DNA of 64,000 nt from Roseimicrobium gellanilyticum. Its GTDB lineage: Bacteria > Verrucomicrobiota > Verrucomicrobiia > Verrucomicrobiales > Verrucomicrobiaceae. The stretch's first letter is position 1; each line of letters starts with the position of its first letter. Position numbers and translations under genes: made by a program. The stretch lies in assembly GCF_003315205.1 (NCBI RefSeq), contig NZ_QNRR01000001.1, positions 124,001 through 188,000 of the forward strand. The letters are read 5' to 3'. The notes under the pieces are model-generated. The model ran no database searches. It was not told the origin of the DNA and saw only the letters and a program-made list of their open reading frames with translations. Positions 1,735-58,727 of this stretch are shown here, piece after piece.

Positions 1735-1772
1735 GTGTGATGGTGAGAATGAGTCACTAACGGCGAGAGGAC

Positions 1773-4442: not shown

Positions 4443-4496
4443 TGAGGATATTGATGGATATGTTACCACGTCTGGCGAGGGACTACTTCGTGCAGG

Positions 4497-4576
4497 CCCT
4501 GGGAGCGCTGGCCTCTGGCCGGCGAATTCATATGCACCGTTGGTTCCACGCCGGCCAGAGGCCAGCGCTCCCAGGG
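4497..4576. repeat. 28-bp perfect inverted repeat (REP-like) within kdp operon
   Basis: The sequence 4497-4524 is the exact reverse complement of 4549-4576, with a 24-nt spacer. The repeat is GC-rich and lies in the short gap between the 144-aa gene (stop at 4582) and kdpD (start at 4442), about 6 nt past that stop. In RNA it would form a very stable stem, able to protect or attenuate the upstream transcript. Its form suggests a dispersed genomic palindrome pair. Confidence 0.85.
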
Positions 4577-4581
4577 CTCAA

Positions 4582-5016: not shown

Positions 5017-5020
5017 AAAA

Positions 5021-5629: not shown

Positions 5630-5654
5630 GGTATGATACAAAGTGATGTGAAAG

Positions 5655-7676: not shown

Positions 7677-7712
7677 GGAATGAAAAGATTTTCAGTTCGC
7701 AATGCAGTGCGT

Positions 7713-9524
7713 TTAGAAGAGGGCACCCTGGGCGTTGAGGAAGTGCTCGACGATGGGGCCGAGGGCGAGCGCGGGCAGGAAGTTCAGCGCGCCGATGAGA
7801 AGGACCGTGCCAATGAGCAGGACCACGAACATGCCGCCGGACACAGGGAAGGTACCCGCGCTGGGAGGTGAGATCTTCTTCTGCACGAGTGAGCCGGCGA
7901 TGGCCATGATGGGCACGATCATGAAGAAGCGGCCAATGAGCATTGCGAGACCCAGCGTGATGTTGTAGTGCGGGTTCCCGCTCGCGGGTGTCGCAGTCAG
8001 GCCGGCGAAAGCGCTGCCGTTGTTCGCAGTCGCGGAGCTGTAGGCGTAGAGGATTTCGCTGAATCCATGGGGGCCAGCATTGTTCAGGCCGGCCAGTCCC
8101 CATTCGCTCACCGAGGCCCATGCGGTGAAGCACAGGATGGAGAGCGTGAGCACCAGCAGCGTGAGCATGGCCATCTTCACCTCATAGGCCTGGATCTTCT
8201 TGCCCAGGTACTCCGGCGTGCGGCCCACCATGAGACCTGCGATGAAGACTGCGAGCACCACGAAGACCAGCATGCCGTACAGACCGGCGCCAACACCGCC
8301 GATGACCACTTCACCCAGTTCCATCATGAACAAGGGAATGAGACCGCCGATTGCCGTGAAGGAGTCATGCATGGCATTCACCGCACCGCAGGACGCCGCA
8401 GTCGTAACCGTGGCGAACAGGGAGGAGTTGAAGATGCCGAAGCGAACTTCCTTGCCTTCCATGTTGCCATCCGCGGCGACGATGCCGAGTCCCTGGTGAA
8501 TGGGGTTACCTTTTGCTTCCGCCCACGAGCAGACCAGCACACCGGCGACGAAGAGTGCCATCATGGCTGCCCACACGGACCAGCCATGTGCCTGGTTCCC
8601 GGTCATGCGACCGAGGTAGTAGGTGAGTGCGCTGCCAATCGCGAAGATGGACAGCATCTGAATGAGGTTCGACAGCGGCGTGGGATTCTCAAAGGGCTGT
8701 GCCGCGTTTGCATTGGTGTATCCACCACCGTTCGTACCCAGCATCTTGATGGCGACCTGTGAGGCCATGGGGCCATGCACGATGGTCTGCTCTTCAATCA
8801 CCTGCTTTTCGGTGACTGGCTGGCCGTCCGCTCCGGTGATGGTGTTGCCCGCGTCATCCTTCTTCTCCACCGTGATGCTCACAGGCTCCACGAGCTTCGC
8901 CTTGTCATACGGCTTGAAGTTCTGGATCATGCCCTGCGACACCAGGAAGATGGCAAACAAGGTGCAGATGGGCAGCAGCAGGTAGTAGGTGATGCGCACC
9001 AGGTCGACCCAGAAGTTGCCCAGCGTTTTGGCAGACTGGCGTGAAATACCACGCACGAGCGCCGCAGCGATCGCGATGCCGGTGGCGGCGGAGACGAAGT
9101 TGTGGAACGTCAGGCCCACCATCTGCGAGAGGTAGGACATGGTCCCTTCACCGCCGTAACTCTGCCAGTTGGTGTTCGTGGTGAAGCTCACGGCTGTGTT
9201 GAAGGCCAGTGCATGTCCCACCGCGGAGAGTCCCTGCGGATTGAGTGGCAGCACATCCTGCAGGCGCAGGATGGCATACGTGAACACCAAGCCCACGAGG
9301 CTGAAGAGCAGCATGGAGACGGTGTAGCGTTTCCAGTCCTGTTCGGCGTCGGGCTTCACACCCATGAGGCCGTAGGTGACGCGTTCCAACGGACGAAGAA
9401 CTGGATCCAGCCACGTACGGCCGTTGGGGTCGAGCACACGGGTGAGATAGATACCGAGGGGTTTGGTGATAAGGGCCAGCAGTGCGATGAAAAGGGCGAA
9501 CTGCAGCCAGTCAGAGGCATTCAT
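7713..9524 (-). CDS. kdpA: KdpA, potassium-binding channel-like subunit
   Basis: KdpA is the K+-selective membrane subunit, built from four pore-loop repeats related to Trk/Ktr channels. The 603-aa protein has the typical start ([10 protein letters not shown]), the selectivity-filter regions such as [23 protein letters not shown] and CGAVNAMHD, and about ten transmembrane helices. It is somewhat longer than the ~560 aa of the E. coli protein; part of the excess is a charged periplasmic loop (about residues 215-250). It begins 18 nt after the kdpF stop and is followed by kdpB. Confidence 0.98.
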
Positions 9525-25002: not shown

Positions 25003-25575
25003 TCAGGGAGCCTTTGCGGCGGCCTGGCTTTCTGGGGAGAGCTTGGAAATGGGCAGGGTAAAGACCTGGCCATCGGCGCGCTCGAGGATGACGTTCTCCC
25101 CTTCGAGGCGGAGCTTCTTGGCTTGGATGGTGCGGCCGTCGGCGCTGGTCCAGGTGGTCATCGCTGCGGCGGGTGCGGCCGGGGCTGCGGGAGCAGTCGG
25201 CGCAGCAACGGGAGCGGTCCCACCTTTGGTGAAGCTGGCGCCTGCGGCGATCCAGCTCTTGATGATGGCGATGTCCTTGTCCGGCATCATCTTTTCCGGA
25301 GGCATGTGGTCGCTGTCATCTGCCGGGGAAGTGAGGCAGGTGAAGAAGCTGCTGCCATCGGGATTGCCCGGGATGATCATCTTCCCAGCGCCGACGCCTT
25401 CCCCGAGGCGCTTCAGGTTGTCGAGCACCAGATCGCCTTTTTCCTTCTTCTCCGCCTCGGAGTGGCACTTGTAGCAGTGCTGCTTCAGAACGGGAACGAC
25501 CTGCGAGGCGAAGTCAGCAGCGAAGGAGAAGCTGGCCGGAGCGAGGGCCAGGGCGGTGAGCAGAAGTTTGTTCAT
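25003..25575 (-). CDS. Secreted planctomycete-type cytochrome c with SHD1-like tail
   Basis: The 190-aa protein has a signal peptide (to about residue 20) and a PSCyt1-type cytochrome domain: the heme site CYKCH (~34-38) and an HMPP motif (~90) that may supply the distal ligand. A Pro/Ala-rich linker (~120-138) leads to a small C-terminal domain (TTWTSADGRTIQAKKL...) like the SHD1 domains found in planctomycete and verrucomicrobial proteins. It is expected to be periplasmic. Its partner is not evident here, though a DUF1501 gene, commonly linked to PSCyt proteins, lies at the right edge. Confidence 0.85.
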   Translation of the reverse strand: MNKLLLTALALAPASFSFAADFASQVVPVLKQHCYKCHSEAEKKEKGDLVLDNLKRLGEGVGAGKMIIPGNPDGSSFFTCLTSPADDSDHMPPEKMMPDKDIAIIKSWIAAGASFTKGGTAPVAAPTAPAAPAAPAAAMTTWTSADGRTIQAKKLRLEGENVILERADGQVFTLPISKLSPESQAAAKAP

Positions 25576-25807: not shown

Positions 25808-27550
25808 ATGTCCACCGTCGCCGTTCGTTCTGCCCAGCTTCCGCCGTCCATTCCCCTGACGGTGCGGAGGTTTCGCCAGCCGAAAAAAACACTGCCGCAG
25901 ACGAAGATCGAGCGCGACAACGTGCTTGCCAAGGTCCGTGCCTACGTCGAGGCGCACACCCTGGTACCGCCCATGCCGCTGGAGGAACTCCGTGTACATG
26001 CGGAGACCGTCATTGCGGAGAACAATTTCAACCCGGTGTGGATTGACTACATCGGCGTGCTGCTGGGGAATGAAGCCTGGCGTGAAACGCTGGCCACCAT
26101 CCCATACGAGCGCCGCCTTCTGCTGATGCCGAAGTGCCTGCGGGTGGAGAGCAAGTGCCCGGCACCCTTCGATGAGTTCGGTTTGCTCTGCAAGCAGTGC
26201 GGCCTGTGCACCATCCAGGACTTCCAGAACGAAGCGGAAAAGCTCGGCTATGCGGTGCTGGTGGCGGAAGGCTCCGCTATCGTGATGAGCCTGATTCAGA
26301 CCGGCAAGATCGAGGCCATTGTCGGCATTTCTTGCCTGCCGGTGCTGGAGCGCACCTTCCCGTATGTGGAGGCTGCCGCCATTCCTGCCGTGGCAGTGCC
26401 GCTCCTGCAGGACGACTGCATCGACACCACCGTGGATATCGATTGGGTGTGGGACTACATCCACCTCACCAGCGATGACAAGACCCGCCGCCTGAACCTC
26501 AATGCGCTGCATGAAGAAGTGCGCGGCTGGTTCACCCGTGAATCCCTGGACGCCCTCCTTGGCAAGCCCACCGACAAGACTGAAGAAATCGCGCGCGACT
26601 GGCTCGCCCGCGCTGGCAACCGCTGGCGCCCCTTCCTCACCGTGGCGGCCCATCAGGCCCTGCGTGACGACCCCGAAGGCCCGCTCAGCGATGCGCTCAA
26701 GAAGGCAGCCATCGCCGTGGAGTGCTTCCACAAGGCCTCGCTCGTGCATGACGACATCGAGGACAACGACGCTGAGCGCTATGGCGAGGCCACCCTCCAC
26801 GCGGAGCACGGCATGCCCGTTGCGCTGAACGTAGGCGACCTGCTCATCGGCGAGGGCTATCGCCTGCTGGTGGACAACAACGTTTCCGGCTCTCTCCGCA
26901 GCGCCATGATCAAGGTGGCCGCTGAAGGCCAGCGTGAACTCTGCCGTGGCCAGGGTGCTGAGCTGCTCTGGAACAACAATCCCGTGGCCCTTACCAGCGC
27001 CCAAGTGCTGGAAATTTTCCGCAGCAAGACCGCTCCTGCCTTCGAGGTGGCGCTCAAGATTGGCGCCGCTCTGGCTGGCAAGCTGGACGACACGGCCGAT
27101 GCGCTGCACGACTACAGCGAGGCCCTCGGCATCGCCTATCAGATCCACGACGACCTTGATGACCTGGGTGACGACTCCGTGGCGGACAATATCGCCGCCA
27201 TGCGTCCGAGCATTGTGCTCGCCCTCCTCCGCGAACGCGGCAAGGGCGAGATCAAGGAGACGATGGAGAAGCTCTGGAACGGCGAGCTGCCCACCATGCC
27301 GGACAAGGCCACCATCCGCGACTGGGCCCAGTCCAGCACCGCGCATGAGAAGGCCATGCTCCTGCTGGAGAGCTACAAGGAGCAGGCCATCCGCTCCCTC
27401 CAGGCCGTGGACAACGCCAATCTCAAGGGCCTGCTGCGCCGCGTGATCGGGAAGATCTTCAACGATCTTGAGATCAAAGGCTGGTGCCGCGAGTTCGAGG
27501 TGAAGAACGCGACCGCCCAGGCCAAGGAAGCCGGTGCGGTGGCGGCGTAA
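25808..27550 (+). CDS. Fusion of DUF116 and a trans-polyprenyl diphosphate synthase
   Basis: The 580-aa protein combines two families. The N-terminal part (~80-240) is a DUF116 domain with a Cys pattern fit for an iron-sulfur or metal site: C110-x6-C117-x10-C128-x2-C131-x2-C134. The C-terminal part (~255-540) is an isoprenyl diphosphate synthase with the first Asp-rich motif DDIEDND (315-321) and the second DDLDD (448-452), which bind Mg-diphosphate. It therefore probably makes a linear isoprenoid chain, with the DUF116 part acting as regulator or redox sensor (inference). The ATG at 25808 begins the protein-like sequence. It is followed by the secreted-protein operon, 76 nt away. Confidence 0.88.
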   Translation: MSTVAVRSAQLPPSIPLTVRRFRQPKKTLPQTKIERDNVLAKVRAYVEAHTLVPPMPLEELRVHAETVIAENNFNPVWIDYIGVLLGNEAWRETLATIPYERRLLLMPKCLRVESKCPAPFDEFGLLCKQCGLCTIQDFQNEAEKLGYAVLVAEGSAIVMSLIQTGKIEAIVGISCLPVLERTFPYVEAAAIPAVAVPLLQDDCIDTTVDIDWVWDYIHLTSDDKTRRLNLNALHEEVRGWFTRESLDALLGKPTDKTEEIARDWLARAGNRWRPFLTVAAHQALRDDPEGPLSDALKKAAIAVECFHKASLVHDDIEDNDAERYGEATLHAEHGMPVALNVGDLLIGEGYRLLVDNNVSGSLRSAMIKVAAEGQRELCRGQGAELLWNNNPVALTSAQVLEIFRSKTAPAFEVALKIGAALAGKLDDTADALHDYSEALGIAYQIHDDLDDLGDDSVADNIAAMRPSIVLALLRERGKGEIKETMEKLWNGELPTMPDKATIRDWAQSSTAHEKAMLLLESYKEQAIRSLQAVDNANLKGLLRRVIGKIFNDLEIKGWCREFEVKNATAQAKEAGAVAA

Positions 27551-27626
27551 GCTGGAGTCGTCGCCGCGAGTTTTTGCCACCGGATTTCCCTTGGCGACAA
27601 CGGGCCGGTGCCGTTAGGTGTGCCGC

Positions 27627-29057
27627 ATGCACTGGAAGCGTTTGCGTGTGACGGGTTCTTTAGTTGTGATCGTCCTGCTCGTGATGGCAGGCGTGTGTCC
27701 CTTGTGGGCGAATGGTGGCGGCTATGTGAAGGGATTGGTATCCAGCGGCGCCTTCAAGCCCCTCGGTATCGAACAGGTGGAAATGTTGACGGAGAAGTTG
27801 GACATCGATCTGCACATTGAGTACGCCGACGTCAGCATCGAGTACGTGCTGCACAATCCGGGACCGAAAGTGACCGTCGAGGCGGGATTTCCCTCGGCAG
27901 TGGCGGTCTATCCGTATGGGGAGGTAGACGAGCCCATGATGACCATGAAGCAGGTGGCCGCGAAGCTGCCACTGGAGAACTTTGAGCTCAAAGCGGATGG
28001 CAGGCCGGTGAAGGTCACGATTCAGTCGGACGACCTCAAGCTGGAGTCCGTGGAGCAGTTCCCCCGAATTTCCACGGACGGTGAAGGCGGCGGCATCACC
28101 GTGAAAGCCTGGCATGTCTTCAAGCTGGACTTTGAGAAGGGCCAGACGCGGCGTGTGACTGTGAGGTACCGCAATCCGTATTTTTCCACCTATGACTATG
28201 TGTCTGATGATATGCGCCTCGGTCCGATGACACTGACCTATCTGTTCTCCAGCGCTGCTGCGTGGGCGGGTCCCATCAAGCACGGCACGGTGACCGTTCG
28301 CTCCGTGACTGCTGACATGAGCAAGCTGGAGTTCAGCCATCCCAAACGCTTCATGAAGGATGGAGATGTGTGGCGCTGGCAATTCACGGACTTCGAGCCC
28401 ACACTGGAGGACGATCTGGTCATCACCCTGCGCCCGGGCGGATTTGGACAGGCAGTGATCACGGAGAACACGACCACCGGTGAGACCGAGTGGAACCACA
28501 CCTCCTACATGGGCTGGGGAGCGAAGATGAGTTTCGAGGAGGACTCAAAGATGGGCGGTCAGTGGGAGCTGCGCCGTCAGGACTTCAAGGCTACGGCATC
28601 CTCCACGCTCACTCCTGGCAAGGAGTTCCGCTACGATGCACAACTGCTCGCTGAGGACGATCCCGATACTGGCAGCTCGGCATGGGTAGAAGGGGTAAAA
28701 GGCGATGGCCTCGGTGAGTCCGTGACTCTCACCCTCGACAAGCCTGCGAAGGTCCGCCGCATCGGGCTGGTGAATGGCTATGCGAAGAATGAAGACATCT
28801 ACCGGAAGAATAACCGCGTTTCGAGGTTCGATGTCAGTGTGAATGGCGGCGCAGCCTTCCCTGTCGATGTGCCGGATGAGAGGCTGGGTTCGGAGATGTT
28901 TTACTTCGACCTGCCGGCATCTGCTGGTGACGTGTCTACCGTGAAGCTTACCATCGCAGGCGTGTACAAGGGCTCGAAGTACCAAGATACCGCTCTATCT
29001 GACGTGGTGCTGGTGGTGCCATTGGAGAAGGAGCCGAAGATTCAGCCGGCGAGGTAG
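27627..29057 (+). CDS. Secreted protein with NADase-type glycan-binding-like C-terminal domain (copy A)
   Basis: The 476-aa protein has a signal peptide (cleavage near WANGGG, residue ~30), a large N-terminal beta-rich domain with the phrase HIEYVLHNPGPKV, reminiscent of DUF4424-type surface proteins, and a C-terminal jelly-roll-like domain (~320-465). The latter matches the pattern of NADase-type glycan-binding domains: ASSTL, AWVEGVKGDGLGESVTL and GLVNGYAK...YRKNNRV. It would act in the periplasm or on the cell surface and bind sugar. The next gene is a clear paralogue in the same order of domains, pointing to tandem duplication. The ATG at 27627 is used; a GTG at 27618 is possible. Confidence 0.82.
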   Translation: MHWKRLRVTGSLVVIVLLVMAGVCPLWANGGGYVKGLVSSGAFKPLGIEQVEMLTEKLDIDLHIEYADVSIEYVLHNPGPKVTVEAGFPSAVAVYPYGEVDEPMMTMKQVAAKLPLENFELKADGRPVKVTIQSDDLKLESVEQFPRISTDGEGGGITVKAWHVFKLDFEKGQTRRVTVRYRNPYFSTYDYVSDDMRLGPMTLTYLFSSAAAWAGPIKHGTVTVRSVTADMSKLEFSHPKRFMKDGDVWRWQFTDFEPTLEDDLVITLRPGGFGQAVITENTTTGETEWNHTSYMGWGAKMSFEEDSKMGGQWELRRQDFKATASSTLTPGKEFRYDAQLLAEDDPDTGSSAWVEGVKGDGLGESVTLTLDKPAKVRRIGLVNGYAKNEDIYRKNNRVSRFDVSVNGGAAFPVDVPDERLGSEMFYFDLPASAGDVSTVKLTIAGVYKGSKYQDTALSDVVLVVPLEKEPKIQPAR

Positions 29058-29119
29058 TTTTCATTTTCCGTGGCGGTTGCCACTGCGCCTGTCCGTCTTG
29101 CGATCCAGCTTGCCTGCTT

Positions 29120-30487
29120 ATGCGTGTCCTGCCCATTGCACTGCTCGTGAGTCTGCTCACGTTCGCTGGTAGCAGTCCCTTGTTCGCCAACGGTGGTGGC
29201 TACACCAAAGGGCTGGCTTCGACCGGCGCTTTCAAGCCCTTTGGGATCGAGCAGGTCGAAATGTTGTCTGAGCGCCTCGAAATCGACCTGCACATCGAGT
29301 ACGCAGAGGTGCGCATTGAGTACGTGTTGCACAACCCTGGGCCGAAGGTCAAGGCTGAGGCAGGCTTTCCTTCTGCTGTTGAGAGAAAATCCGGGCTCAT
29401 GGGACTTCCTGAAAGGGTGGATGAAAAACACCGGATCGAAGATCTGGCGATGACCGTGGATGGTGAGCCGGTGAGCTTGAGAGTTGAGCCTGACGACTTG
29501 TACCTGAAAAGCAGCAAGCCCCTCTCCTTCGCAGCAGAGATCCCTGCCATGACGATCAAGGCCTGGCATGTATTCGCCATCGATTTCGGCAAGGGACAGA
29601 CAAGGAAGGTGACCGTGCGGTACCGCCACCCCTATGCGGACTCGCTCACCTACGTCAGCAGCAACGCCAGGTCCAACGGACCATCTCTCGCGTACATTTT
29701 CTCCAGTGCCGCTGCGTGGCAGGGGCCCATCCGCCAGGGCACGGTGATGGTACGTGCCAAGTCCGTGGATCCTGAGCGTGTGCAACTCAGCCACCCCAAG
29801 AGATTCCAGCGAGAGGGCAACACATGGACCTGGCTCTTCACCGATTTCGAGCCGACGCTGGAAGATGACATGGTGATTTCTCCGAGACCCGGCAAATACA
29901 GTCCGGAAAACGTGATTCATCAGCTTAAAGACGGAGAAGTGAATGAGGAGCGCATCTCCTATGTGCAATGGTATCTGGGGGAGAGTGAAGACCGAGGATG
30001 GGAACTACACCGCAGTGACTATGCAGCCACGGCTTCGTCGACGCTGCCACCAGATGGCTCCCGGAAATACGGTGTGGAGAATGTCGCGGACTGGAGCAAG
30101 GAAACCGCCTGGGTGGAAGGCGTGCCGGGCCAAGGCATCGGGGAGTCCATCACACTGACCTTGCCGACCCCGGCCAAGGTCCGCAGAGCAGGCATCGTGA
30201 ACGGCCTTGCGGACAGCGGGGAATTATACTTTGCCAACAGCCGGGTAGCGAAGCTGGATGTCAGTGTGAATGGTGGCAAGCCGGTGCGGGTTGAGCTGCC
30301 GGATGAGATGCTTTCCAGTGAGCGTTTCTATTTTGATCTGCCAGACACCAAAGGAGAGGCGGTGAAGTCCGTGAAGCTCACCATTGCAGAGGTGTACCCG
30401 GGCACGAAGTTTGAGGACACCTGCATCTCTGATGTGGTGCTGGTGGTGCCGCTTTCGAAGAAGCCCAAGCTGCATCCGATTCGGTGA
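29120..30487 (+). CDS. Secreted protein with NADase-type glycan-binding-like C-terminal domain (copy B)
   Basis: The 455-aa protein is a paralogue of the upstream gene, sharing the signal peptide plus FANGGGY start, GIEQVEMLSERLEIDLHI, VLHNPGPKVKAEAGFPSAV, and the C-terminal block AWVEGVPGQGIGESITL. The two have diverged most in the middle loop (about residues 88-130 of this copy). It begins 62 nt after copy A and overlaps the next gene by GTGA, so all three are probably one operon. The role is unknown; glycan binding by the C-terminal domain is an inference from the family pattern. Confidence 0.82.
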   Translation: MRVLPIALLVSLLTFAGSSPLFANGGGYTKGLASTGAFKPFGIEQVEMLSERLEIDLHIEYAEVRIEYVLHNPGPKVKAEAGFPSAVERKSGLMGLPERVDEKHRIEDLAMTVDGEPVSLRVEPDDLYLKSSKPLSFAAEIPAMTIKAWHVFAIDFGKGQTRKVTVRYRHPYADSLTYVSSNARSNGPSLAYIFSSAAAWQGPIRQGTVMVRAKSVDPERVQLSHPKRFQREGNTWTWLFTDFEPTLEDDMVISPRPGKYSPENVIHQLKDGEVNEERISYVQWYLGESEDRGWELHRSDYAATASSTLPPDGSRKYGVENVADWSKETAWVEGVPGQGIGESITLTLPTPAKVRRAGIVNGLADSGELYFANSRVAKLDVSVNGGKPVRVELPDEMLSSERFYFDLPDTKGEAVKSVKLTIAEVYPGTKFEDTCISDVVLVVPLSKKPKLHPIR

Positions 30488-33108
30488 GGTCATCAGGGCG
30501 ATGGTTTTGGCGCTGTATGCTGACGGCTCTTCTACTGAAGCTGTCAGGAGCCGGGAGTGGTATGTGGGCTGCTGCGCCTTCGTTGCCAGTCTATCTCGAA
30601 GAATCCCACGCGGGCAGCTTCTATTTCCTCGCACAGACATTGCCGCTGAATGAGCCGCACACGCTGGTGCTGTTTGATGCACACAGTGATGCGTCGGCGA
30701 TTCCGAAGTCGGATGGTATTCGCGAAGCGATCCGGAAGGTGGCGTCCGTAGAGGAGAGGGCGGCAAGGTTGGAGAAGTGGCGGGAGACGGGCGTGATCCA
30801 GGCTTACAACTGGATGGAGCCGTTGATGCCTTCTCCCATCGCAGAAGTGGTGTGGGTGCCCATGCGCAAGCTGGACGAGGCGCAGCGGGCGAAGCTTGAG
30901 CAGGAGGCGCGTGAGTTCCTGGATGGTCACGAGGAGGCATTGCCACGTGATGCGGGAGCCTTCGCCCAGCGGTTGCGTGTCATGGACTTTGAGACGTGGC
31001 AGAAGGAATCCGCCGCGTGGCCAAGTGACAAGCGGATCGTAGCGAGCATTGATCTGGATTACTTTGCCGCGAGCACAGATGAGAACCTTGCGAGTGAGGT
31101 GGCGGAAGTCGCTGCAGCGGTGGCGCGGCTGCGCGGACTCGAGGCGCTATGCTGGGCTCTCTCCACACCCTGGCTGAAGTCGCAGGCACAGACGGATGCC
31201 TTGATGTGTGCGGCGCTGGAGCAGAGCTGGTCCATCACCAATGCCGCGGTGCAATGGGAGCCGTTTGTGAAGGCGGGACCAGATCGCTCCATGATGGCGA
31301 AGTTGCGGCAGCGGCGGGGCGAGCAGATTCCGGAGTTCAAACTCGATGAGGCATCGTTGAAACTGCGGACCTTGATCCTGCAACGTTGGAAACCTGAGCA
31401 AACGCGAGTGGAGCGTGAGCGACTGGAGAGGATGATGAACGGCTGGCGTGGTGACAGCTTTCTTCCCGCAATATCCATGAGTGACCGTGCTCGCGAGCCG
31501 GATGGCAGCTATCGCCTCGAAGCATCACAATCCGCCAGCATCGTCATGGAGCCACCGCCCACGGGAGCGCGCGTGCGCTGGTGGGCGCTTCGAGCGAGTT
31601 CGGATGTGTATCGAGTCACGGATGTGGACTTTGGATTCGCGAGCGATGCTCCGCGATGGATTCAGCAACGACGGGTGCTGCTTGCAGAAGGTCCCGTGAT
31701 GAAGGCGCTGGATGTGAAACACCTCGCTCCCGTGCTCGATGCAGCATACCACTGCGGTACAGCCCAGATCTTTGCGGAAGTGATACGTGATGGTGAGTCG
31801 CGCTACTCCAATGTCCTCACTCTTCGGGTTCGTGCATCTGGCAGCACCGGATTGCGTGCAGCGTGGAGCGAGCAGTTCAGTTTGCCCTACATCTTTGGGT
31901 CCACCTGGATTGCGGAAGGAAGGCGATCCGGTCCGGAGACAGGTTGGGGTGCGGACTGTGCAAACTTCACTTCCGCGGGATATCGCGCCGAAGGCTGGCG
32001 CGTGCCGTGGGGAAGTCCCAGGGACATGCGCGACTGGCTGGAGCCATGGCAGGGGCCGGTGCGTGCGGATGATGGGTGCCTCATCCACTTTGGCTCCCAC
32101 GTGGCCGCGCTGTGGGAAGATCGCGAGCCCTTGGGCAGGTTCGACGATTCCGACCTTGTCGTGCATCAACTGGAGGGCGTCCCATCCGTGGTGAGTTTCG
32201 CAGAGATCAAGAAGGGAAGGCGCGCTCCCGAGATCCTGCGCATGAAACGACCCAAGCGCGAAGTGCGACTCTTGCTCGGTGGCGACGTGATGCTGGGCAG
32301 GAAGGTGGGGGAGGCCATTGGCCAGGGGCGGAACCCCATGAGTGCCATTACTGAGCAAATCTCTGCCGCAGATCTTGCCGTGGTGAATCTGGAATGTGCC
32401 GTATTGTCGGAAGCAGCAGCAAAAGATCCAAGGGCTCCACTCGCCGCTCCCGCGAAGGCGGTCACACTCCTGCGAGACTCTGGTGTGGACCTCGTGAGCC
32501 TGGCAAACAACCACAGCATGGATCGCGGGAGCGCGGGACTGGACGATACTCTGCGCGCACTCGAGACCTCCAGATTGAAGCAATCAGGTGCAGGCAAAGA
32601 CCCTGTTGATGCTGGCAAGGCCGCCATTGTGGAAGTGAAAGGGAGGCGTTTCGCTTTCATTTCCGTTTTTGATGACCCTCAACCGTCAAGGGCACCGAGA
32701 GGGCAACCGCAGATCTTCACCACCGCTGAACCTGAGCGCATCATCGATGCCATTGCGGAGGCTCGCACTCAGGCGGACGTGGTCATTGTTCTTCCTCATT
32801 GGGGCCGTGAGCATGCGCCGGGACCTTCTGCGGAGCAGCGTGCCCTCGCGGCGTCATGGATGCAGGCGGGCGCGAATCTCGTGGTGGGTTCTGGCCCTCA
32901 TGTGGTGCAGCCTCTTGAGCATCTCCTTGGCGGCAGTGTGGCATGGTCGCTGGGGAATCTTGTGTTCGATGGCCCAGGCCCTTCGCGGGAGTGGCATCGT
33001 GGCGCCTTATTGGAAGTCACCTGGGATGCCGACACCATGCGCATGGTGCGCGCGAGGATGATACCTGTGGAGATTGGGAATGATGGGATGGTGATGCTGG
33101 CTCAATGA
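30484..33108 (+). CDS. Three-domain protein: UPF0489, NlpC-like and CapA/PGA_cap
   Basis: The 874-aa protein has an N-terminal hydrophobic signal or anchor (~8-30) and three apparent domains. First, UPF0489-like (~33-330) with arginase-like metal motifs DAHSD (65-69) and SIDLDYF (D190, D192). Second, an NlpC/P60-like unit (~455-585) with C492 in GADCANF and H539 in HFGSHVA. Third, a CapA/PGA_cap metallophosphatase-like domain (~595-860) with GGDVMLGR (D601), VNLECAV, SLANNHSMDRG (H677), VLPHWGREH and WSLGNLVFD. The GTG start overlaps the previous stop (GTGA), indicating translational coupling. The combination suggests a multi-step hydrolase or synthase for a peptide-bearing envelope polymer (inference). 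Confidence 0.8.
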   Translation: MRSSGRWFWRCMLTALLLKLSGAGSGMWAAAPSLPVYLEESHAGSFYFLAQTLPLNEPHTLVLFDAHSDASAIPKSDGIREAIRKVASVEERAARLEKWRETGVIQAYNWMEPLMPSPIAEVVWVPMRKLDEAQRAKLEQEAREFLDGHEEALPRDAGAFAQRLRVMDFETWQKESAAWPSDKRIVASIDLDYFAASTDENLASEVAEVAAAVARLRGLEALCWALSTPWLKSQAQTDALMCAALEQSWSITNAAVQWEPFVKAGPDRSMMAKLRQRRGEQIPEFKLDEASLKLRTLILQRWKPEQTRVERERLERMMNGWRGDSFLPAISMSDRAREPDGSYRLEASQSASIVMEPPPTGARVRWWALRASSDVYRVTDVDFGFASDAPRWIQQRRVLLAEGPVMKALDVKHLAPVLDAAYHCGTAQIFAEVIRDGESRYSNVLTLRVRASGSTGLRAAWSEQFSLPYIFGSTWIAEGRRSGPETGWGADCANFTSAGYRAEGWRVPWGSPRDMRDWLEPWQGPVRADDGCLIHFGSHVAALWEDREPLGRFDDSDLVVHQLEGVPSVVSFAEIKKGRRAPEILRMKRPKREVRLLLGGDVMLGRKVGEAIGQGRNPMSAITEQISAADLAVVNLECAVLSEAAAKDPRAPLAAPAKAVTLLRDSGVDLVSLANNHSMDRGSAGLDDTLRALETSRLKQSGAGKDPVDAGKAAIVEVKGRRFAFISVFDDPQPSRAPRGQPQIFTTAEPERIIDAIAEARTQADVVIVLPHWGREHAPGPSAEQRALAASWMQAGANLVVGSGPHVVQPLEHLLGGSVAWSLGNLVFDGPGPSREWHRGALLEVTWDADTMRMVRARMIPVEIGNDGMVMLAQ

Positions 33109-46592: not shown

Positions 46593-47078
46593 ATGCCCCT
46601 CAACTTCGTCCGCTTCAAACACGCGCGCTTCACGGCACGCTTTCCTGAGTCCTACCGCTACTCCCGCAGCCACTACTGGATGGCGCCGGTAGAAGGGGAG
46701 GAGGGATTGTGGCGTGTGGGGTTCACGAAGTTCGCCACCCGCATGCTGGGGGAACTGGTCGAGGCGAACTTCAAAGTGAACGTGGGCGACCCCATTTTCC
46801 CCGGCGATTCCATCGGCAGCGTGGAAGGGTTCAAAGCGGCCAGCGATGTCCTCTGTGTCATGGAGGGCTCCTTCGCCGGCATGAATGACGCTCTCAACGT
46901 CGACGCCTGCATCGTGAAGAGCGACCCCTACGAAGTCGGCTGGCTGTACGCGGCAAAGGGGCAGCCCGAGGAGGATTCCCTGGACGTGCACGGTTACGTG
47001 GCGCTCCTGCAGGAGACCATTCAGCGGATGGCTGACGCCGGGTACGGGCACGATGAGGACGGGGAAAAGGAATATTAG
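46593..47078 (+). CDS. GcvH-like lipoyl-domain protein
   Basis: The 161-aa protein resembles the H protein of the glycine cleavage system: it has the hammerhead lipoyl-domain pattern with GSVEGFKAASD, where K81 aligns with the lipoylated Lys of GcvH (ESVKAASD), then NDALN and a final DPYEVGWLY. It differs from true GcvH in the N-terminal extension and the distinct C-terminal tail, and no gcvT or gcvP is nearby. It is followed by a radical SAM gene, a Cys-rich protein and a ferredoxin. It may therefore be a stand-alone lipoyl carrier for that cluster, as in the LbpA proteins of sulfur-oxidation systems (inference). Confidence 0.8.
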   Translation: MPLNFVRFKHARFTARFPESYRYSRSHYWMAPVEGEEGLWRVGFTKFATRMLGELVEANFKVNVGDPIFPGDSIGSVEGFKAASDVLCVMEGSFAGMNDALNVDACIVKSDPYEVGWLYAAKGQPEEDSLDVHGYVALLQETIQRMADAGYGHDEDGEKEY

Positions 47079-47184
47079 CCTTCGGGCCTGGGATTCCTGG
47101 CCCGAACGCGGTTGACCGCAGACCTTCTGCGACGACCTTTTCATGTGACTTTGGGCAATCGACTGGCGTAATCTCTGCCGGCTC

Positions 47185-48390
47185 ATGATTTTCTCCCTCT
47201 CCAACCGCATCCTCAGCACCGTGGACCCCAAGTGCCTCGCCAAGATGGCGTGGAACTTCGGCTTCAAGGGGGCTCGCTCCGTGATGCTGTTCAAGAAGCG
47301 GATGAAACAGGGCATTCACTTCCCGCCCTTCCTATACCTCAGCATCCTGAACTCGTGCAATCTGCGCTGTCAGGGGTGCTGGGTGGACGTGGAGGCCCCG
47401 CGCAATGCCATCGACCTCGACACGCTGAATCGCACGGTCAATGACGCCCGCGAGCACGGGAACAGCTTCTTTGGCATTCTCGGAGGTGAGCCTTTTATGC
47501 ATCCCGAGCTGCTCGACTTCCTTGCGCAGCATCCGGATTGCTACTTCCAGGTTTTCACCAATGGCCAGCTCATCACGGAGAAGGCCGCCCGTGCCCTGAG
47601 GCAGATTGGCAATGTCACCCCGCTCATCAGCATCGAGGGCACCAAGACCGTGAGCGACGAGCGCCGCGGCAACAAGGACGTGCTCAATCGCACTCTGCGC
47701 GGTCTGCAACACTGCCTGGAGCAGAAACTCCTCACCGGCGTGGCCACCAGCCTCTGCCAGACGAATCTCGATGACCTCCTGAGCGAGGCCTGGCTGGACA
47801 AGCTCATCGACATGGGCGTGCACTACACCTGGTACCACACCTACCGTCCCGTGGGTCCGAAGATCAATGAACAGCTCGCGCTGAATCCTGAGCAGATCAA
47901 TCGCGCGCGCCGCTTCATTGTGAACATGCGTGCGCGCAAGCCCATCGCCATCGTGGATGCCTACTACGATCACGCTGGCCAGGCCTTGTGCCCGATGGCC
48001 ACGGGTATCAGCCACCATGTGAGTCCGAAGGGCAGCATCGAGCCGTGCCCCATCATTCAATTCGCCACAGAGGACATCACCGACAAGCGCGGCCTTTTCG
48101 AGACCTTCACGAACAGCGCCTTCCTCGCTGACTTCCGCAAGACTTCTGCCGAGCATACCCGCGGTTGCGTCGTCCTGGAGCGTCCCGACGTGGTGAAGCA
48201 ACTCGTGCTCAAGCACGGCGCCAAAGACACCACCGTGCGCCAGACCGCCATTGCGGAATTGGACCGCATGAGCCCGCGCCCGAGCCAGTGGGTGAAGGAG
48301 GAGAACATCCCCGAGAAACACTGGATGTACTGGGTGGCGAAGCGGTTCTTCTACACGGACTTTGGCGTGTACAAGGATCTGAAGGCGTAA
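47185..48390 (+). CDS. Radical SAM enzyme with SPASM-like C-terminal cysteines
   Basis: The 401-aa protein has the radical SAM cluster motif CNLRCQGC (C58-x3-C62-x2-C65) on a SAM-barrel with the GGEPF motif (~99-103). A C-terminal stretch has further Cys (ALCPMAT, EPCPIIQF and RGCVVLE) that may hold a second cluster, as in SPASM enzymes. It would need a ferredoxin or flavodoxin reductant, which the ferredoxin at 49531-50385 can supply. Its gap to the GcvH-like gene is about 106 nt and contains an 8-bp hairpin at 47081-47106. The reaction is not predictable; modification of the lipoyl protein or a sulfur-transfer reaction is possible (inference). Confidence 0.87.
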   Translation: MIFSLSNRILSTVDPKCLAKMAWNFGFKGARSVMLFKKRMKQGIHFPPFLYLSILNSCNLRCQGCWVDVEAPRNAIDLDTLNRTVNDAREHGNSFFGILGGEPFMHPELLDFLAQHPDCYFQVFTNGQLITEKAARALRQIGNVTPLISIEGTKTVSDERRGNKDVLNRTLRGLQHCLEQKLLTGVATSLCQTNLDDLLSEAWLDKLIDMGVHYTWYHTYRPVGPKINEQLALNPEQINRARRFIVNMRARKPIAIVDAYYDHAGQALCPMATGISHHVSPKGSIEPCPIIQFATEDITDKRGLFETFTNSAFLADFRKTSAEHTRGCVVLERPDVVKQLVLKHGAKDTTVRQTAIAELDRMSPRPSQWVKEENIPEKHWMYWVAKRFFYTDFGVYKDLKA

Positions 48391-48460
48391 CCTCCTGGCG
48401 TCCTGCCTGTGAATGTTCCTTGTACGGGGCTGGCAGGCATAGCAATATTTGATTGTGACC

Positions 48461-48805
48461 ATGTCCGAGCCCTCTTCCCAAGCCCCCAAACTCCTCTACT
48501 GCCGCTGCGCCTATGCCCAGGTGGTGCCCCAGGGCGTGAAGAATGGCGTGCTGGAGAAGCTGTGCGAATCCGGCGCGAGCTTTGAATCCGTGTCCGATCT
48601 CTGCGAAATGGCCGCCCATCGTGACCCCCGGCTCAAGGCCTTCGCGGAAAGCACCCCTCTTCGCATCGCCGCCTGCTATCCTCGCGTGGTGCGCGGCCTT
48701 TTCCGTCAGTGTGGCTCCCCGCTGCCCGAAGAGGGTGCCGAAGTGCTGAACATGCGCGCCCAGAGCGCGGATGAAGTGGCGGCGGGCATGCTGAAAGGGG
48801 AGTGA
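48461..48805 (+). CDS. Conserved-looking Cys-rich small protein
   Basis: The 114-aa soluble protein begins with LLYCRCAY and has further Cys in KLCESGASFESVSDLCEMAA, IAACYPRVVRGLF and RQCGSPLP (six in all). The arrangement recalls small subunits and domains of iron-sulfur redox complexes such as heterodisulfide-reductase-like proteins, but I cannot assign a family. It lies between the radical SAM and Uma2 genes with gaps of 70 and 33 nt. The ATG at 48461 is preferred. A redox partner role for the cluster is an inference. Confidence 0.7.
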   Translation: MSEPSSQAPKLLYCRCAYAQVVPQGVKNGVLEKLCESGASFESVSDLCEMAAHRDPRLKAFAESTPLRIAACYPRVVRGLFRQCGSPLPEEGAEVLNMRAQSADEVAAGMLKGE

Positions 48806-48838
48806 TCTTTTTTGTTTTTCCCGCGTATACTCTGGGTC

Positions 48839-49534
48839 ATGTCCACTCCCGCCAGACAGCCTGCGCCCCAGGCTCCGAAACAGGTGACGCGCATCGGTCC
48901 GATGACCATGCAGGAGTACCTGCGCCGGGAGCGCGAGTCTGAGTTCAAGCACGAGTACCGGGATGGATACATGATCCCGGTGGGGGAAATGCTGGCGATG
49001 TCCGGCGGGACGATTCCGCACAGCAAGATCAAGGTCAACCTTGTTACCCTCCTCTCGACCAAGCTTCGTGGGAAAAAGTGCCAGCCATACGACTCTGATC
49101 TGATGGTGTTGCTGGCACACGCGAACAAGGGGACTTATCCAGACGCCAGCGTATTCTGCGAACCGTTGGAAGTCACCGAAGAGGAGAAAAACGCTCCCAC
49201 CAATCCCTCAGCCATCTTCGAAGTCCTCTCCAGTACCACCGAGGCCTATGATCGTGGCGAGAAGTTTGAGGCTTATCAGCAGGTGTCCTCAATGAGGCTC
49301 TATGTGTTGATCTCGCAAAGCCACCCCCTTGTTGAAGTCTACGAACGTCCAGAAGGCGGCGGCCCTCAATGGCTCTACACCGCGTATGCCCGTGTGGAGG
49401 CCATCGCAAAGCTCCCCGCTCTGGGCATTGAAATCCCTCTCGCCGATCTCTACGAAAACGTCGAGTTTCCTCCCGAAGACCCTCTTTACACAGCCATGCT
49501 GCGCGAGCAGGAGGCTGCCTACGCCATCCCATGA
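48839..49534 (+). CDS. Uma2-family (DUF820) putative endonuclease
   Basis: The 231-aa protein matches the Uma2/DUF820 family, a PD-(D/E)XK-type nuclease fold found in large numbers in cyanobacteria, Planctomycetota and Verrucomicrobiota. Visible pieces are FKHEYRDGYMIP, SDLMVLLA, GTYPDASVFC and the AIFEVLSSTTEAYDRGEKFEAYQQ motif block. Their cellular role is unclear. Its stop overlaps the start of the ferredoxin gene by ATGA, so translation is coupled. A Uma2 gene inside a redox operon is odd and may be a later insertion or a real partner. Confidence 0.85.
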   Translation: MSTPARQPAPQAPKQVTRIGPMTMQEYLRRERESEFKHEYRDGYMIPVGEMLAMSGGTIPHSKIKVNLVTLLSTKLRGKKCQPYDSDLMVLLAHANKGTYPDASVFCEPLEVTEEEKNAPTNPSAIFEVLSSTTEAYDRGEKFEAYQQVSSMRLYVLISQSHPLVEVYERPEGGGPQWLYTAYARVEAIAKLPALGIEIPLADLYENVEFPPEDPLYTAMLREQEAAYAIP

Positions 49535-50385
49535 TCACCCACACCGCCCGTCCCCTCCGCGTTGTCCTTTACGAAGGCAATGGCGCCATCCCGCTGTCCG
49601 CTGAGGCCCGGACCCAGGTGATGATCGCATTGCTGGACAAGGGCTATGTGGTCACGCGTGCCACGGCTCAAGGCGGTGGGGCCATGCCGCATGACGATCG
49701 CAGCCTGCTGGTGCTCGGTTTGTTCCCAGAAAAGCAGGCGCCGAATCTCGAAGACGTCACGGGTCAGGTCAGCATCCAATCGCGCGATATCACGGGGCTC
49801 GATGCCGAGTCCGTGCTCGAGCTCGTGGAAAAGGTCCGCGGCGCTGAGCCGATGAACCAACCTGGCACGTGGAAGCCCTGGTTCCCGGTGATTGATTACA
49901 GCCGCTGCACAAACTGCATGCAGTGCCTGAGCTTCTGCCTCTTCGATGTGTATAGCGTCAGCAACGCCGGGAAGATCCAGGTGGAGAACAATGACAATTG
50001 CAAGACGAACTGCCCTGCTTGCTCCCGCGTCTGTCCAGAGGTGGCCATCATGTTCCCGAAGTACTCCGCGGGCCCCATCAATGGTGATGTGGTGAACGAT
50101 GATGACCTTCGCCGTGAAAAGATGAAGGTGGACATCACCAGTCTCCTCGGCGGCGATATTTACTCGCGCCTGCGCGACCGCAGCGAGGCTGCCAAGAGCC
50201 GCTTCAGCAAGGAGCGCAGTGCGGACAAGGCACTGGATGAACGCAAGAAGTGCCTCACGAAAATGGCGCAGGATGGATTCATTCCCGCTGAGGTGCTTGC
50301 TGCGCTGCCGTCTCCAGATGAGATCATGCGCAAGGCCACGGAGGCGCAGGCCAAGGCCGCAGCGGCGCTGGCGCCCAATGCATGA
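49531..50385 (+). CDS. Two-cluster 4Fe-4S ferredoxin-type protein with extra domains
   Basis: The 284-aa protein has an N-terminal alpha/beta domain (~1-105), then a ferredoxin domain with two cluster motifs: CTNCMQC...C (CxxCxxCxxxC from residue ~126) and CKTNCPACSRVCP (CxxxCxxCxxxC). The C-terminal part is helical and charged (~185-284). Family unknown beyond the ferredoxin motifs. It likely transfers electrons in the cytoplasm, possibly to the radical SAM enzyme upstream. A short stretch resembling its C-terminus (ALPSPDEI) reappears at 50904-50972. It is convergent with a small lipoprotein gene. Confidence 0.85.
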   Translation: MITHTARPLRVVLYEGNGAIPLSAEARTQVMIALLDKGYVVTRATAQGGGAMPHDDRSLLVLGLFPEKQAPNLEDVTGQVSIQSRDITGLDAESVLELVEKVRGAEPMNQPGTWKPWFPVIDYSRCTNCMQCLSFCLFDVYSVSNAGKIQVENNDNCKTNCPACSRVCPEVAIMFPKYSAGPINGDVVNDDDLRREKMKVDITSLLGGDIYSRLRDRSEAAKSRFSKERSADKALDERKKCLTKMAQDGFIPAEVLAALPSPDEIMRKATEAQAKAAAALAPNA

Positions 50386-57045: not shown

Positions 57046-57073
57046 GCCGGCTCGCTCGCTCTTTTTGCAATTT

Positions 57074-57106
57074 GGGAGAATGCATCATTCTGCGGTGCAT
57101 TCTCCC
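57074..57106. repeat. 11-bp perfect inverted repeat after ridA
   Basis: GGGAGAATGCA (57074-57084) pairs with 57096-57106 around an 11-nt loop. It lies 28 nt after the ridA stop and 52 nt before the PQQ-repeat gene. It may end the ridA transcript, although no T-run follows it on the plus strand. Confidence 0.65.
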
Positions 57107-57158
57107 GTGCAAGACGGGACAATGGCGATCCGTTGGCATGGAACTACCCGGTCCCACC

Positions 57159-58727
57159 ATGCTGCGTCGTCTTGCCCCCATTGCTTTGCTTTCGTGTTTT
57201 TCTGCTGCCACACTCCACGCGGAGTGGAATCAATGGCGCGGCTCGCAGCGCAACGGCATCAGCGATGACTCCACGCCGATTGCCGGTTCGCTGCCTCAGG
57301 GAAGCCTGACCCCCATCTGGGAAAGCGGCACCATTCCCAGCGACCATGACGGTGGACACAGCAGTCCCGTGGTCAGTGGCGGACGCGTGTATTTGAGTGT
57401 CGTGTGGCACACGCGTGTGCCCTCGGAGACGCGTCTCATTGATGAAGAAGTGATCAGCGCCGTGGGGCATCGCGGTACCAACGTGCTCGGCGCGGAACTC
57501 ACGAAGAAGATGGAGGACGCGCGCAAGAGCCGCCCTGGCAGCATGCGTGGCACGGCCCTTGATGAGGCCGCGAAGAAGTGGGTGGAGGAGAACTTCAGCG
57601 AAGAGCAGAAGCTTGTGCTGGGTACTTGGGCCGAGCAGCGCTTCAAGCAGGGGAAGAACGCCATCGATGTCGAGCTGCTGGATAAAGTGGCAAAACGACA
57701 GAACAAACCATTCGCCACTGCGGCGGAGTTGCTCACGTGGGCAGAGACTGAATTCCCAGACACGACTGTGCGCGAGCGTATCCTCAAGGCGATCCCCGAC
57801 ACCTTGAAGGTCGGCCGCGACACCATCGTGTGCCTCGACGGGCAGACCGGAAAGGAACTGTGGAAGTTTGAGCACGAGGGCCAGCCCACGGGGCGCCGCA
57901 CCTCCGGAACCCCCGCCGTCGTGGATGGCAAGGTGTATGCCGTGGGCAGCACCAACCTCTACGCAGTGGATGCGGAAAAAGGCACACTTGTCTGGAAGAC
58001 TGAGCTCAAGCCCGCCGGTGCTGGCAGCTCGCCACTCGTGAACGATGACAAGGTCTACGTCATGGCGGGCGGCCTCATGTGCGTGGAGACCGCCACTGGC
58101 AAGACCCTCTGGACCAGCAAGGAAGTGAAGGGAGACACCGCCAGCCCTGTCCTCTGGAAGACAAGCGACGGCAAGACCACCCTGGTGTGTAATGCCAACA
58201 AAGGACTCATCGGCCTCGATCCCGCCACAGGTGAGAAACGTTGGGAGGTGGAAGGCGGTGGCCAGTCATCGCCGGTGATTGAAGGCGATCACCTTGTCAT
58301 CTTCAGCGGTGCCCAGGATGTGGGCCTGCGCTGCTACCTCGCGCAGAAAGATGCCGCACCCAAGACCCTGTGGTCCCACTGGTGGATGTCCCGTCGCTAC
58401 ACCGGCTCCCCCATCATCCATGAAGGTCACGTCTATCTCATGTGCGGCGGCAAGCACCAGTGCGTGAGCCTCGCCGATGGCAAAGTGAAGTGGCAGGAGG
58501 AAGTGGAGAGCACCATCACTTCACCCCTGCTGGTGGATGGCAAGATTCTCAGCATCGAGCAGAACGGCATCTTCCTGCGCCTCATCAAAGCCGACCCCGC
58601 CAGCTACCAACTCCTTGGTCGCGCCAAGGTGGAGGCCATGTGGTGTCCTACACCCGCTCCCTACGACGGCCGTCTCATTGTCCGTCGCAAGGACAAGGTG
58701 GTGTGCTTTGACTTGCGGCAGAAATAA
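57159..58727 (+). CDS. Secreted PQQ-type beta-propeller repeat protein
   Basis: The 522-aa protein has a signal peptide (~1-21), then EWNQWRGSQRNGISDD, the typical start of verrucomicrobial and planctomycetal PQQ-like outer-membrane or periplasmic propellers. Repeats such as VCLDGQTGKELWKFEHEG, YAVDAEKGTLVWKTEL and IGLDPATGEKRWEVEGG are visible. A helical insertion of about 130 residues (~90-215), rich in charged residues, interrupts the propeller after the first blade. PQQ-binding residues for alcohol-dehydrogenase activity are not evident, so the function may be structural or binding. The ATG at 57159 is preferred; 57138 is in frame. Confidence 0.85.
   Translation: MLRRLAPIALLSCFSAATLHAEWNQWRGSQRNGISDDSTPIAGSLPQGSLTPIWESGTIPSDHDGGHSSPVVSGGRVYLSVVWHTRVPSETRLIDEEVISAVGHRGTNVLGAELTKKMEDARKSRPGSMRGTALDEAAKKWVEENFSEEQKLVLGTWAEQRFKQGKNAIDVELLDKVAKRQNKPFATAAELLTWAETEFPDTTVRERILKAIPDTLKVGRDTIVCLDGQTGKELWKFEHEGQPTGRRTSGTPAVVDGKVYAVGSTNLYAVDAEKGTLVWKTELKPAGAGSSPLVNDDKVYVMAGGLMCVETATGKTLWTSKEVKGDTASPVLWKTSDGKTTLVCNANKGLIGLDPATGEKRWEVEGGGQSSPVIEGDHLVIFSGAQDVGLRCYLAQKDAAPKTLWSHWWMSRRYTGSPIIHEGHVYLMCGGKHQCVSLADGKVKWQEEVESTITSPLLVDGKILSIEQNGIFLRLIKADPASYQLLGRAKVEAMWCPTPAPYDGRLIVRRKDKVVCFDLRQK

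What the first reader, a model, noticed from the sequence alone, without database searches (positions are those of the whole stretch)
46593..50385. Lipoyl carrier, radical SAM enzyme, Cys-rich protein and two-cluster ferredoxin in one cluster
Seen: a GcvH-like protein with the lipoyl Lys in place (K81) but no gcvT/gcvP nearby, then a radical SAM enzyme with extra C-terminal Cys, a six-Cys small protein, a Uma2 protein and a ferredoxin with two cluster motifs, all on the plus strand with small gaps and one ATGA overlap. Established: lone GcvH-like proteins can serve as lipoyl carriers (LbpA) in sulfur-oxidation systems, and radical SAM enzymes need Fe-S electron donors. Inference: the genes form a redox module in which the lipoyl arm carries a reduced or sulfur-bearing group. 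I know of no described pathway with this set.
Basis: partly seen in the sequence, partly recalled or inferred. Interest (0 to 1): 0.75.

Follow-up and report, generated by a model that had tools for sequence, protein, structure and literature searches.

The report
Scattered radical-SAM terpenoid gene set

Summary
The GcvH-like protein is not the housekeeping H protein: a gcvT-gcvH-gcvP operon lies on another contig, and module GcvH-like proteins form one fully supported group. The cluster is a fragment of a larger set: GcvH-like (H), CobW-type GTPase (W), Cys-rich protein (C), ferredoxin (F), radical SAM (R), DUF116–prenyl synthase fusion (P), short and long squalene-cyclase-like proteins (s, L). 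In 115 genomes of the phylum, fused P and L occur in the same 17; R is in 16 of these, C in 14, W in 8, H in 4; outside them only one weak C hit was seen. Here the set is dispersed: P at window 25808-27550, s and W on contig C14, L on C6. C and F are one protein in 12 of 13 phylum-sample loci, separate but adjacent in closer relatives. C shows the four-cysteine plus NxR pattern of the N-terminal domain of HdrA. Uma2 looks inserted. Best reading: an uncharacterised terpenoid pathway in which P and L make and cyclise a prenyl chain, R does a radical step, C-F carries electrons, and H assists. The set is well supported; product and chemistry are inference. My paper searches found no description of it.

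The parts
46593..47078 (+). GcvH-like lipoyl-carrier protein (H), 161 aa; lipoyl Lys81 codon at 46833-46835
   Evidence: PF01597 64.8 bits; K81 invariant in 19 rows; apart from canonical GcvH with 100/100 support
47185..48390 (+). radical SAM enzyme (R), 401 aa, with three extra invariant C-terminal Cys (likely auxiliary Fe-S cluster, SPASM/twitch-like)
   Evidence: PF04055; A4 alignment; 16 of 115 phylum genomes at E <= 1e-60; below the cut-off of each NCBIfam model shown (25 of 59 shown)
48461..48805 (+). Cys-rich protein (C), 114 aa, resembling the N-terminal Fe-S domain of HdrA
   Evidence: 4 invariant Cys + N97xR99; pattern control; predicted structure pLDDT 92.7; VIA-align Z 5.7-6.7 to HdrA N-termini, tied with other Rossmann-like folds; hhalign P 0.005 in register, probability 7%
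48839..49534 (+). Uma2-family protein; judged an insertion between C and F, not a component
   Evidence: PF05685 97.1 bits; not seen between C and F in the relatives examined
49531..50385 (+). Ferredoxin (F), 284 aa: Cys-less Rossmann-like N-terminal domain (about 9-105), two 4Fe-4S motifs, helical tail
   Evidence: Fer4 families; A3; model confident only for about residues 11-105 and part of the tail (mean pLDDT 60.9); C and F are one ORF in 12 of 13 loci L019-L031
25808..27550 (+). DUF116–polyprenyl diphosphate synthase fusion (P); ORF opens at 25772, likely ATG at 25808
   Evidence: PF01976 122.7 bits; prenyl-synthase NCBIfam models and PDB GGPP synthases E 3e-25; DDIED and DDLDD motifs in place

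Best explanation
The genes are the radical-SAM and electron-transfer part of a conserved but here dispersed isoprenoid (terpenoid) biosynthesis set. SHOWN: P, L and R, with C-F in most, occur together and vary together within families of the phylum, and are often side by side on one strand; H and W are further partners in a subset. INFERRED: the prenyl-synthase half of P makes a C20 or longer prenyl diphosphate, L (DxDDT motif) and perhaps s cyclise it, and R carries out a radical step on the linear or cyclised chain, using its SAM cluster and an auxiliary cluster. C (HdrA N-terminal-like Fe-S domain) and F (dicluster ferredoxin) form a short electron wire without the FAD domain of HdrA, feeding R and/or the Cys-rich DUF116 half of P. 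The lipoyl arm on Lys81 of H most likely serves R as a dithiol (H-atom or electron) donor, or carries the group that is transferred. W is a CobW-type GTPase, perhaps for metal supply.
For: Same 115 genomes throughout: fused DUF116-P in 17 (frames of 500 aa or more; both halves matched in all 17) and L in the same 17; R in 16 of them; C in 14 (a 15th weak hit, G031, was dropped because its stretch L032 held no other set gene); W in 8, all inside the 17; the H clade in 4, all inside (183-232 bits, next best 87). Naive chance that 16 R genomes fall in the 17 is about 1e-18, not corrected for kinship; but families f11, f15, f18, f26 and f27 each hold genomes with and without R, fused P and L. Linkage: C-F-R-P in this order on one strand in 10 of 13 loci (L022-L031), with s, L, PQQ-propeller and NapG/NapH-like genes in some; in 79 named loci C 69, R 33, P 25, H 20, W 19, s 16, L 7. 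This genome holds every member. Motifs: P DDIED/DDLDD, L PDADDT. C: pattern shared with HdrA and little else.
Against: No product is known and no member has been tested. R scores below the curated radical SAM families shown, so its reaction cannot be read off. H is in only 4 of the 17 set genomes, so it cannot be essential in all; and of 16 named loci with both H and R, H lies directly next to R in only 4, with W between in 2 and farther off (or on the other strand, L102) in 10. L and s are distant from characterised cyclases (hopene cyclase 81 bits, cut-off 431). G114 has P, L and W but no R or C hit. The link of C to HdrA is weak by profile (hhalign probability 7%, and 1.6% with 10 diverse rows), its structural Z is no better than for other Rossmann-like folds, Foldseek gave no significant match, and the profile search of PDB sequences did not find HdrA.
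Confidence: 0.55

Rival explanations
1. Sulfur module: the lipoyl arm of H carries a sulfur group (as LbpA does in the sHdr pathway), with C-F as an Hdr-like redox partner and R inserting sulfur into the prenyl product or another substrate.
For: H is GcvH-like and C is HdrA-N-terminal-like, both reminiscent of sHdr systems; an IscS-like cysteine desulfurase gene lies within the stretch in 9 of the 96 sources scanned (family).
Against: The two LbpA-specific cysteines (PMC6067878, section 6 read) are not conserved columns in H. R comes with fused P and L in all 16 genomes that have it, which sHdr does not explain. The desulfurase lies on either strand and is missing near most loci.
Confidence: 0.18
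2. The set makes a membrane redox carrier (quinone-like or terpenoid), and the PQQ-propeller and NapG/NapH-like genes in distant relatives are its oxidoreductases; C-F and DUF116 are then users of the carrier, not helpers of R.
For: PQQ-type propeller genes beside the set in several distant loci, NapG/NapH-like genes in L021, L030, L031, L169 and NapG alone in L025; DUF116 was proposed to act in electron transfer on context grounds (PMC5898192, section 13 read).
Against: In the window no close relative of the propeller or NapGH-like genes turned up near the set; only a distant propeller-type ORF at 57072-58727, about 7 kb on. PQQ-like propellers are common in such genomes (general knowledge).
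Confidence: 0.17
3. Ordinary chance neighbours: housekeeping H protein, an unrelated radical SAM enzyme and ferredoxins.
For: In this genome the set is scattered over three contigs, and a Uma2 gene sits in the middle.
Against: Phylogenetic profiles agree almost perfectly; a canonical gcvTHP operon exists elsewhere; the tree separates H from GcvH with 100/100 support.
Confidence: 0.02

Closest known systems
DUF116/COG1852 fused to polyprenyl synthetase (Psta_0175 of Pirellula staleyi, noted in PMC5898192)
   Same: Same domain pair as P in the window; the authors suggest electron transfer for DUF116.
   Different: The section I read (13) gives one sentence on the fusion and does not mention radical SAM, cyclase, HdrA-like or GcvH-like partners for it.
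Hopanoid pathway with radical SAM HpnH
   Same: Squalene-cyclase-like enzyme plus a radical SAM enzyme; R matches the HpnH model weakly (45.6 bits).
   Different: R is far below the HpnH cut-off (225.05), L far below the hopene-cyclase cut-off; the set has its own prenyl synthase fused to DUF116, an HdrA-like Fe-S wire and, in some, a lipoyl carrier. That HpnH makes adenosylhopane is recalled; only lists papers holding the words.
LbpA lipoate-binding proteins of the sHdr sulfur oxidation pathway (PMC6067878)
   Same: GcvH-like carrier with lipoyl Lys, apart from glycine cleavage, near an Hdr-like Fe-S protein.
   Different: LbpA-specific cysteines not conserved; tied to prenyl synthase and cyclase.
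HdrA, heterodisulfide reductase subunit A (PMC9012536; PDB 5odc, 8rvu)
   Same: C shares the C-x-C ... C ... C ... N-x-R arrangement and a compatible predicted fold with its N-terminal Fe-S domain; C-F has this domain plus a ferredoxin.
   Different: No FAD/thioredoxin-reductase-like domain in C-F.

Membership tests
Glycine cleavage H protein (GcvH) | Lipoyl lysine in the GCV_H family | tested here: met
   PF01597 64.8 bits over cut-off 22.2; K81 invariant in 19 rows
Glycine cleavage H protein (GcvH) | Reaches the curated GcvH equivalog score and groups with canonical GcvH | tested here: not met
   TIGR00527 66.5 bits, cut-off 115.85; other side of a 100/100 branch; gcvT-gcvH-gcvP elsewhere
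LbpA of sHdr | Two extra conserved cysteines near the N- and C-terminus (PMC6067878) | tested here: not met
   No Cys among invariant or nearly invariant columns of A5. The paper exempts some archaeal LbpA, so this lowers but does not exclude membership.
LbpA of sHdr | Encoded with shdr genes and a dedicated lipoylation gene set | not tested
   No directed search for HdrB/HdrC, sLpl or LipS was made; none was recognised among the 30 largest recurrent ORF families printed
HdrA | N-terminal Fe-S domain: C-x-C, C, C, N-x-R arrangement | tested here: met
   Pattern found in 83 of 10,043 frames: 75 with the DLC form of C, 6 HdrA-type, 2 others (overlapping loci counted repeatedly, 78 distinct strings at a recount)
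HdrA | N-terminal domain: significant profile or fold match | tested here: inconclusive
   hhalign P 0.005, probability 7%; VIA-align Z 5.7-6.7, tied with unrelated folds; PDB profile search without HdrA
HdrA | FAD-binding thioredoxin-reductase-like domain | tested here: not met
   No Pfam match for C; ferredoxin families and one sub-threshold HTH hit for F
Radical SAM with auxiliary cluster (SPASM/twitch-like) | CxxxCxxC plus conserved C-terminal Cys | tested here: met
   C58/C62/C65 and C269/C288/C328 invariant in 18 rows; that these bind a second cluster is inferred
Any named radical SAM equivalog (NirJ, HpnH, PqqE, ...) | Curated NCBIfam cut-off | tested here: not met
   Best 66.4 bits vs cut-off 525 (TIGR04347); HpnH 45.6 vs 225.05 (best 25 of 59 shown)
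trans-prenyl diphosphate synthase (C-terminal half of P) | Two Asp-rich motifs and a family match | tested here: met
   HDDIED and DDLDD in own P; NF041169 116.5 bits, below its cut-off 450; PDB GGPP synthase E 3.4e-25
Squalene-hopene cyclase (L) | DxDDT motif in a squalene-cyclase-type protein | tested here: met
   PDADDT in own L and at 90% or more over 15 sequences; PF13243 100.2 bits
Squalene-hopene cyclase (L) | Curated hopene_cyclase score | tested here: not met
   TIGR01507 81 bits vs 431.1

The most novel reading that the evidence does not exclude
A previously undescribed class of radical-SAM-modified cyclic terpenoid membrane lipid or redox carrier, made in part of the Verrucomicrobiota and perhaps in Planctomycetota, by a pathway with its own HdrA-derived electron wire, a DUF116 redox domain fused to the prenyl synthase, and in some lineages a dedicated lipoyl carrier that hands hydrogen, electrons or a chemical group to a radical SAM enzyme.
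Probability: 0.35. Interest if true: 0.85.

Novelty: new variant of a known kind. Interest (0 to 1): 0.62.

Why it matters
If right, an unread lipid pathway of a widespread bacterial phylum becomes testable gene by gene, and it would join two things not known to me to meet: a lipoyl swinging arm outside 2-oxoacid, glycine and sulfur metabolism, and an HdrA-type Fe-S domain outside flavin-based electron bifurcation. It also gives DUF116 a specific context. Hopanoid production is often inferred from cyclase genes, so a look-alike cyclase tied to another pathway would matter for such inference.

Tried and rejected
Rejected: (1) normal glycine-cleavage H protein, by the separate gcvTHP operon and the tree. 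(2) Uma2 as a component: seen between C and F in no other locus scanned; L086 and L097 have a distant Uma2-like ORF (36-39%) downstream of F instead. (3) A self-contained five-gene module: the co-inherited unit is larger. (4) Searches of C against PDB sequences found no HdrA; Foldseek gave no match with E <= 0.001; only VIA-align listed HdrA, among many Rossmann-like folds. (5) That the Cys-less N-terminal domain of F is a decayed copy of C: element order is alike, but hhalign gave probability 0.6% and VIA-align listed only Rossmann/CheY-like and similar folds, so it stays a guess. (6) The HdrA model NF041891 hits 108 of 115 genomes, mostly through ferredoxin parts; I used only the long matches L140-L143.

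Papers: searches (all 10). None of the listings shows a paper describing the whole set; some gave zero papers; one (COG1852) gave one, PMC5898192 (passage and section 13 read). PMC6067878: passages and section 6 read. PMC10332631, PMC9012536, PMC8692599: passages read. The rest: listing and start of abstract only. The library lacks most subscription papers, so absence is weak evidence.

Full report
Observation. The five ORFs are present as described. Families: GcvH-like PF01597, radical SAM PF04055, nothing for the Cys-rich protein, Uma2 PF05685, dicluster ferredoxin. Below I call them H, R, C, U and F.

Is H the ordinary H protein? No. PF01597 finds two genes in this 7.93 Mb genome: H and a canonical gcvH on contig C6, which sits between gcvT and gcvP (families confirmed). 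With a profile of H from 19 rows, 97 of 115 phylum genomes give some hit, but only 4 score as H (183-232 bits, next 87): G000, G066, G012, G065; each also has at least one copy in the canonical score range. A tree of 25 module and 27 canonical sequences separates the two with 100/100 support. The lipoyl lysine is invariant in the module alignment. H lies directly beside R in these 4 genomes. In the 16 named loci that hold both, H is directly beside R in 4, has W between in 2, and lies farther off in 10 (in L102 R is on the other strand); there W commonly follows H.

Conserved neighbourhood. A search with C in 115 phylum genomes found 15 hits. One (G031) was weak and its stretch had no other set gene, so I dropped it. 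In the stretches around the others, C-F, R, a DUF116-polyprenyl synthase fusion (P), a short (s) and a long (L) squalene-cyclase-like gene recur, with PQQ-propeller and NapG/NapH-like genes in several. C-F-R-P stand in this order on one strand in 10 of 13 (L022-L031). In L021 R lies on the other side of H; L020 lacks R nearby; L019 has C-F alone. In 12 of the 13, C and F are one ORF; only L019, from the same family as the window, has them apart, as the window does.

Named relatives. Most titles name Verrucomicrobia or groups within it; one is titled Acidobacteria, two Proteobacteria, and eight Akkermansia muciniphila. Many contigs end inside the stretch, so these are lower bounds. In all 69 with C, it is a separate ORF from F, mostly within 100 bases. 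An IscS-like cysteine desulfurase lies nearby in 9 of 96 sources, on either strand.

Co-inheritance. Over the same 115 genomes: DUF116 in 22, of which 17 in frames of 500 aa or more, and in all 17 the match to P runs through both halves. L is in the same 17 (E <= 1e-30); R in 16 of them (E <= 1e-60); C in 14; W in 8 (E <= 1e-30); H in 4. Outside the 17, none of these was found at the stated thresholds except the dropped G031 hit. Of the three without a C hit, G109 has a weak C and an F beside R, G101 has an F beside R, and G114 has P, L and W but no R. Naive odds are below 1e-17 for R and for L against P. Kinship inflates this, but families f11, f15, f18, f26 and f27 each hold genomes with and without R, fused P and L.

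The set in this genome is complete but scattered: H-R-C-(U)-F at 46593-50385, P at 25808-27550 in the same window, L on C6, s at C14:37010-37882, W at C14:139437-140531. G066 of the same family is scattered too.

What the parts are. P: DUF116 plus prenyl synthase with both Asp-rich motifs. Small residues before the first motif would suggest a C20 or longer product (rule recalled, not tested). DUF116 has at least six conserved cysteines and was proposed to work in electron transfer; that paper also notes the same fusion in Pirellula staleyi (PMC5898192). L: squalene-cyclase-like with DxDDT, far below the hopene-cyclase cut-off. s: a prenyltransferase-type toroid protein. R: radical SAM with three more invariant C-terminal cysteines, no named family reached. 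W: CobW-type GTPase.

C and HdrA. C has four invariant cysteines and N97-x-R99. HdrA-type genes from four phylum genomes (L140-L143; one checked against PDB, E 3e-208) start with the same arrangement. The pattern C.C-C-C-N.R with length windows fits 83 of 10,043 frames of 80 aa or more in the DNA held then: 75 bear the DLC form of C, 6 are HdrA-type, one is a lone DUF116 frame and one looks non-coding. Loci overlap, so some frames count more than once (78 distinct strings, 69 with DLC, at a later recount). I built the pattern from both groups, so it shows specificity, not independent discovery. The structure of C is predicted well (pLDDT 92.7); HdrA chains 8rvy, 8rvu, 5odh, 5odc and 7bkd appear with Z 5.7-6.7 over 103-107 residues, tied with unrelated Rossmann-like folds; Foldseek gave nothing significant. 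hhalign aligns the second half in register with P 0.005 but probability 7%; with 10 diverse rows P 0.031 and 1.6%. In HdrA this domain holds an Fe-S cluster on the path to ferredoxin, with one ligand from the partner subunit (PMC9012536, passages). I take C as HdrA-N-terminal-like with confidence about 0.7.

Mechanism and confidence. That R, P, L and C-F form one functional set: 0.93. That it is isoprenoid/terpenoid biosynthesis: about 0.65. That C-F passes electrons to R and/or DUF116: about 0.55. That H serves R with its lipoyl dithiol: about 0.25; H is missing from 13 of 17 set genomes, so it must be a lineage-specific aid or replaceable. Sulfur transfer by H is the main rival (0.18).

Uma2. 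In G066 C and F are 42 bases apart with nothing between. In 69 named loci with both, C-F gaps are mostly 0-100 bases; seven exceed 350 (L105 among them has a cut C frame). No Uma2 match lay between them. I take Uma2 as an insertion here.

Noticed in passing
window 25003-25575 (-): Small CxxCH cytochrome-like protein divergent from P; a 53% relative lies near P in G066 (L166 11679-12188).
   Followed up: partly
window 27618-30487 (+): Two tandem paralogues (52% identical) with an NADase_transloc F5/8-type domain and a weak DUF4424 match, followed by a PGA_cap protein at 30484-33108, all just downstream of P.
   Followed up: partly
window 57072-58727 (+): PQQ-propeller-type ORF about 7 kb downstream of F, grouped with the propeller genes of distant set loci, but only about 24% identical to one of them.
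   Followed up: partly
window 1057-9524 (-): Kdp-like potassium ATPase genes with a KdpD/KdpE-like sensor pair, judged by eye from ORF starts.
   Followed up: no
L122 (genome G095): A lone DUF116 frame fits the same C-x-C ... C ... C ... N-x-R pattern as HdrA and C, perhaps an old kinship between DUF116 and the HdrA N-terminal domain, or chance.
   Followed up: no
L086 10882-11445, L097 10882-11430: Distant Uma2-like ORFs directly downstream of F in two named relatives, so Uma2 genes may have entered near F more than once.
   Followed up: no
L077 and L105: Two F loci carry titles of the same MAG (Akkermansia muciniphila isolate MaH-09apr19-44): two copies of the set, or a mixed bin. Eight kept loci bear that species name, while the 14 genomes of another family in the window's order (f2) lack R, P and L; the titles may be mislabelled, not checked.
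   Followed up: no
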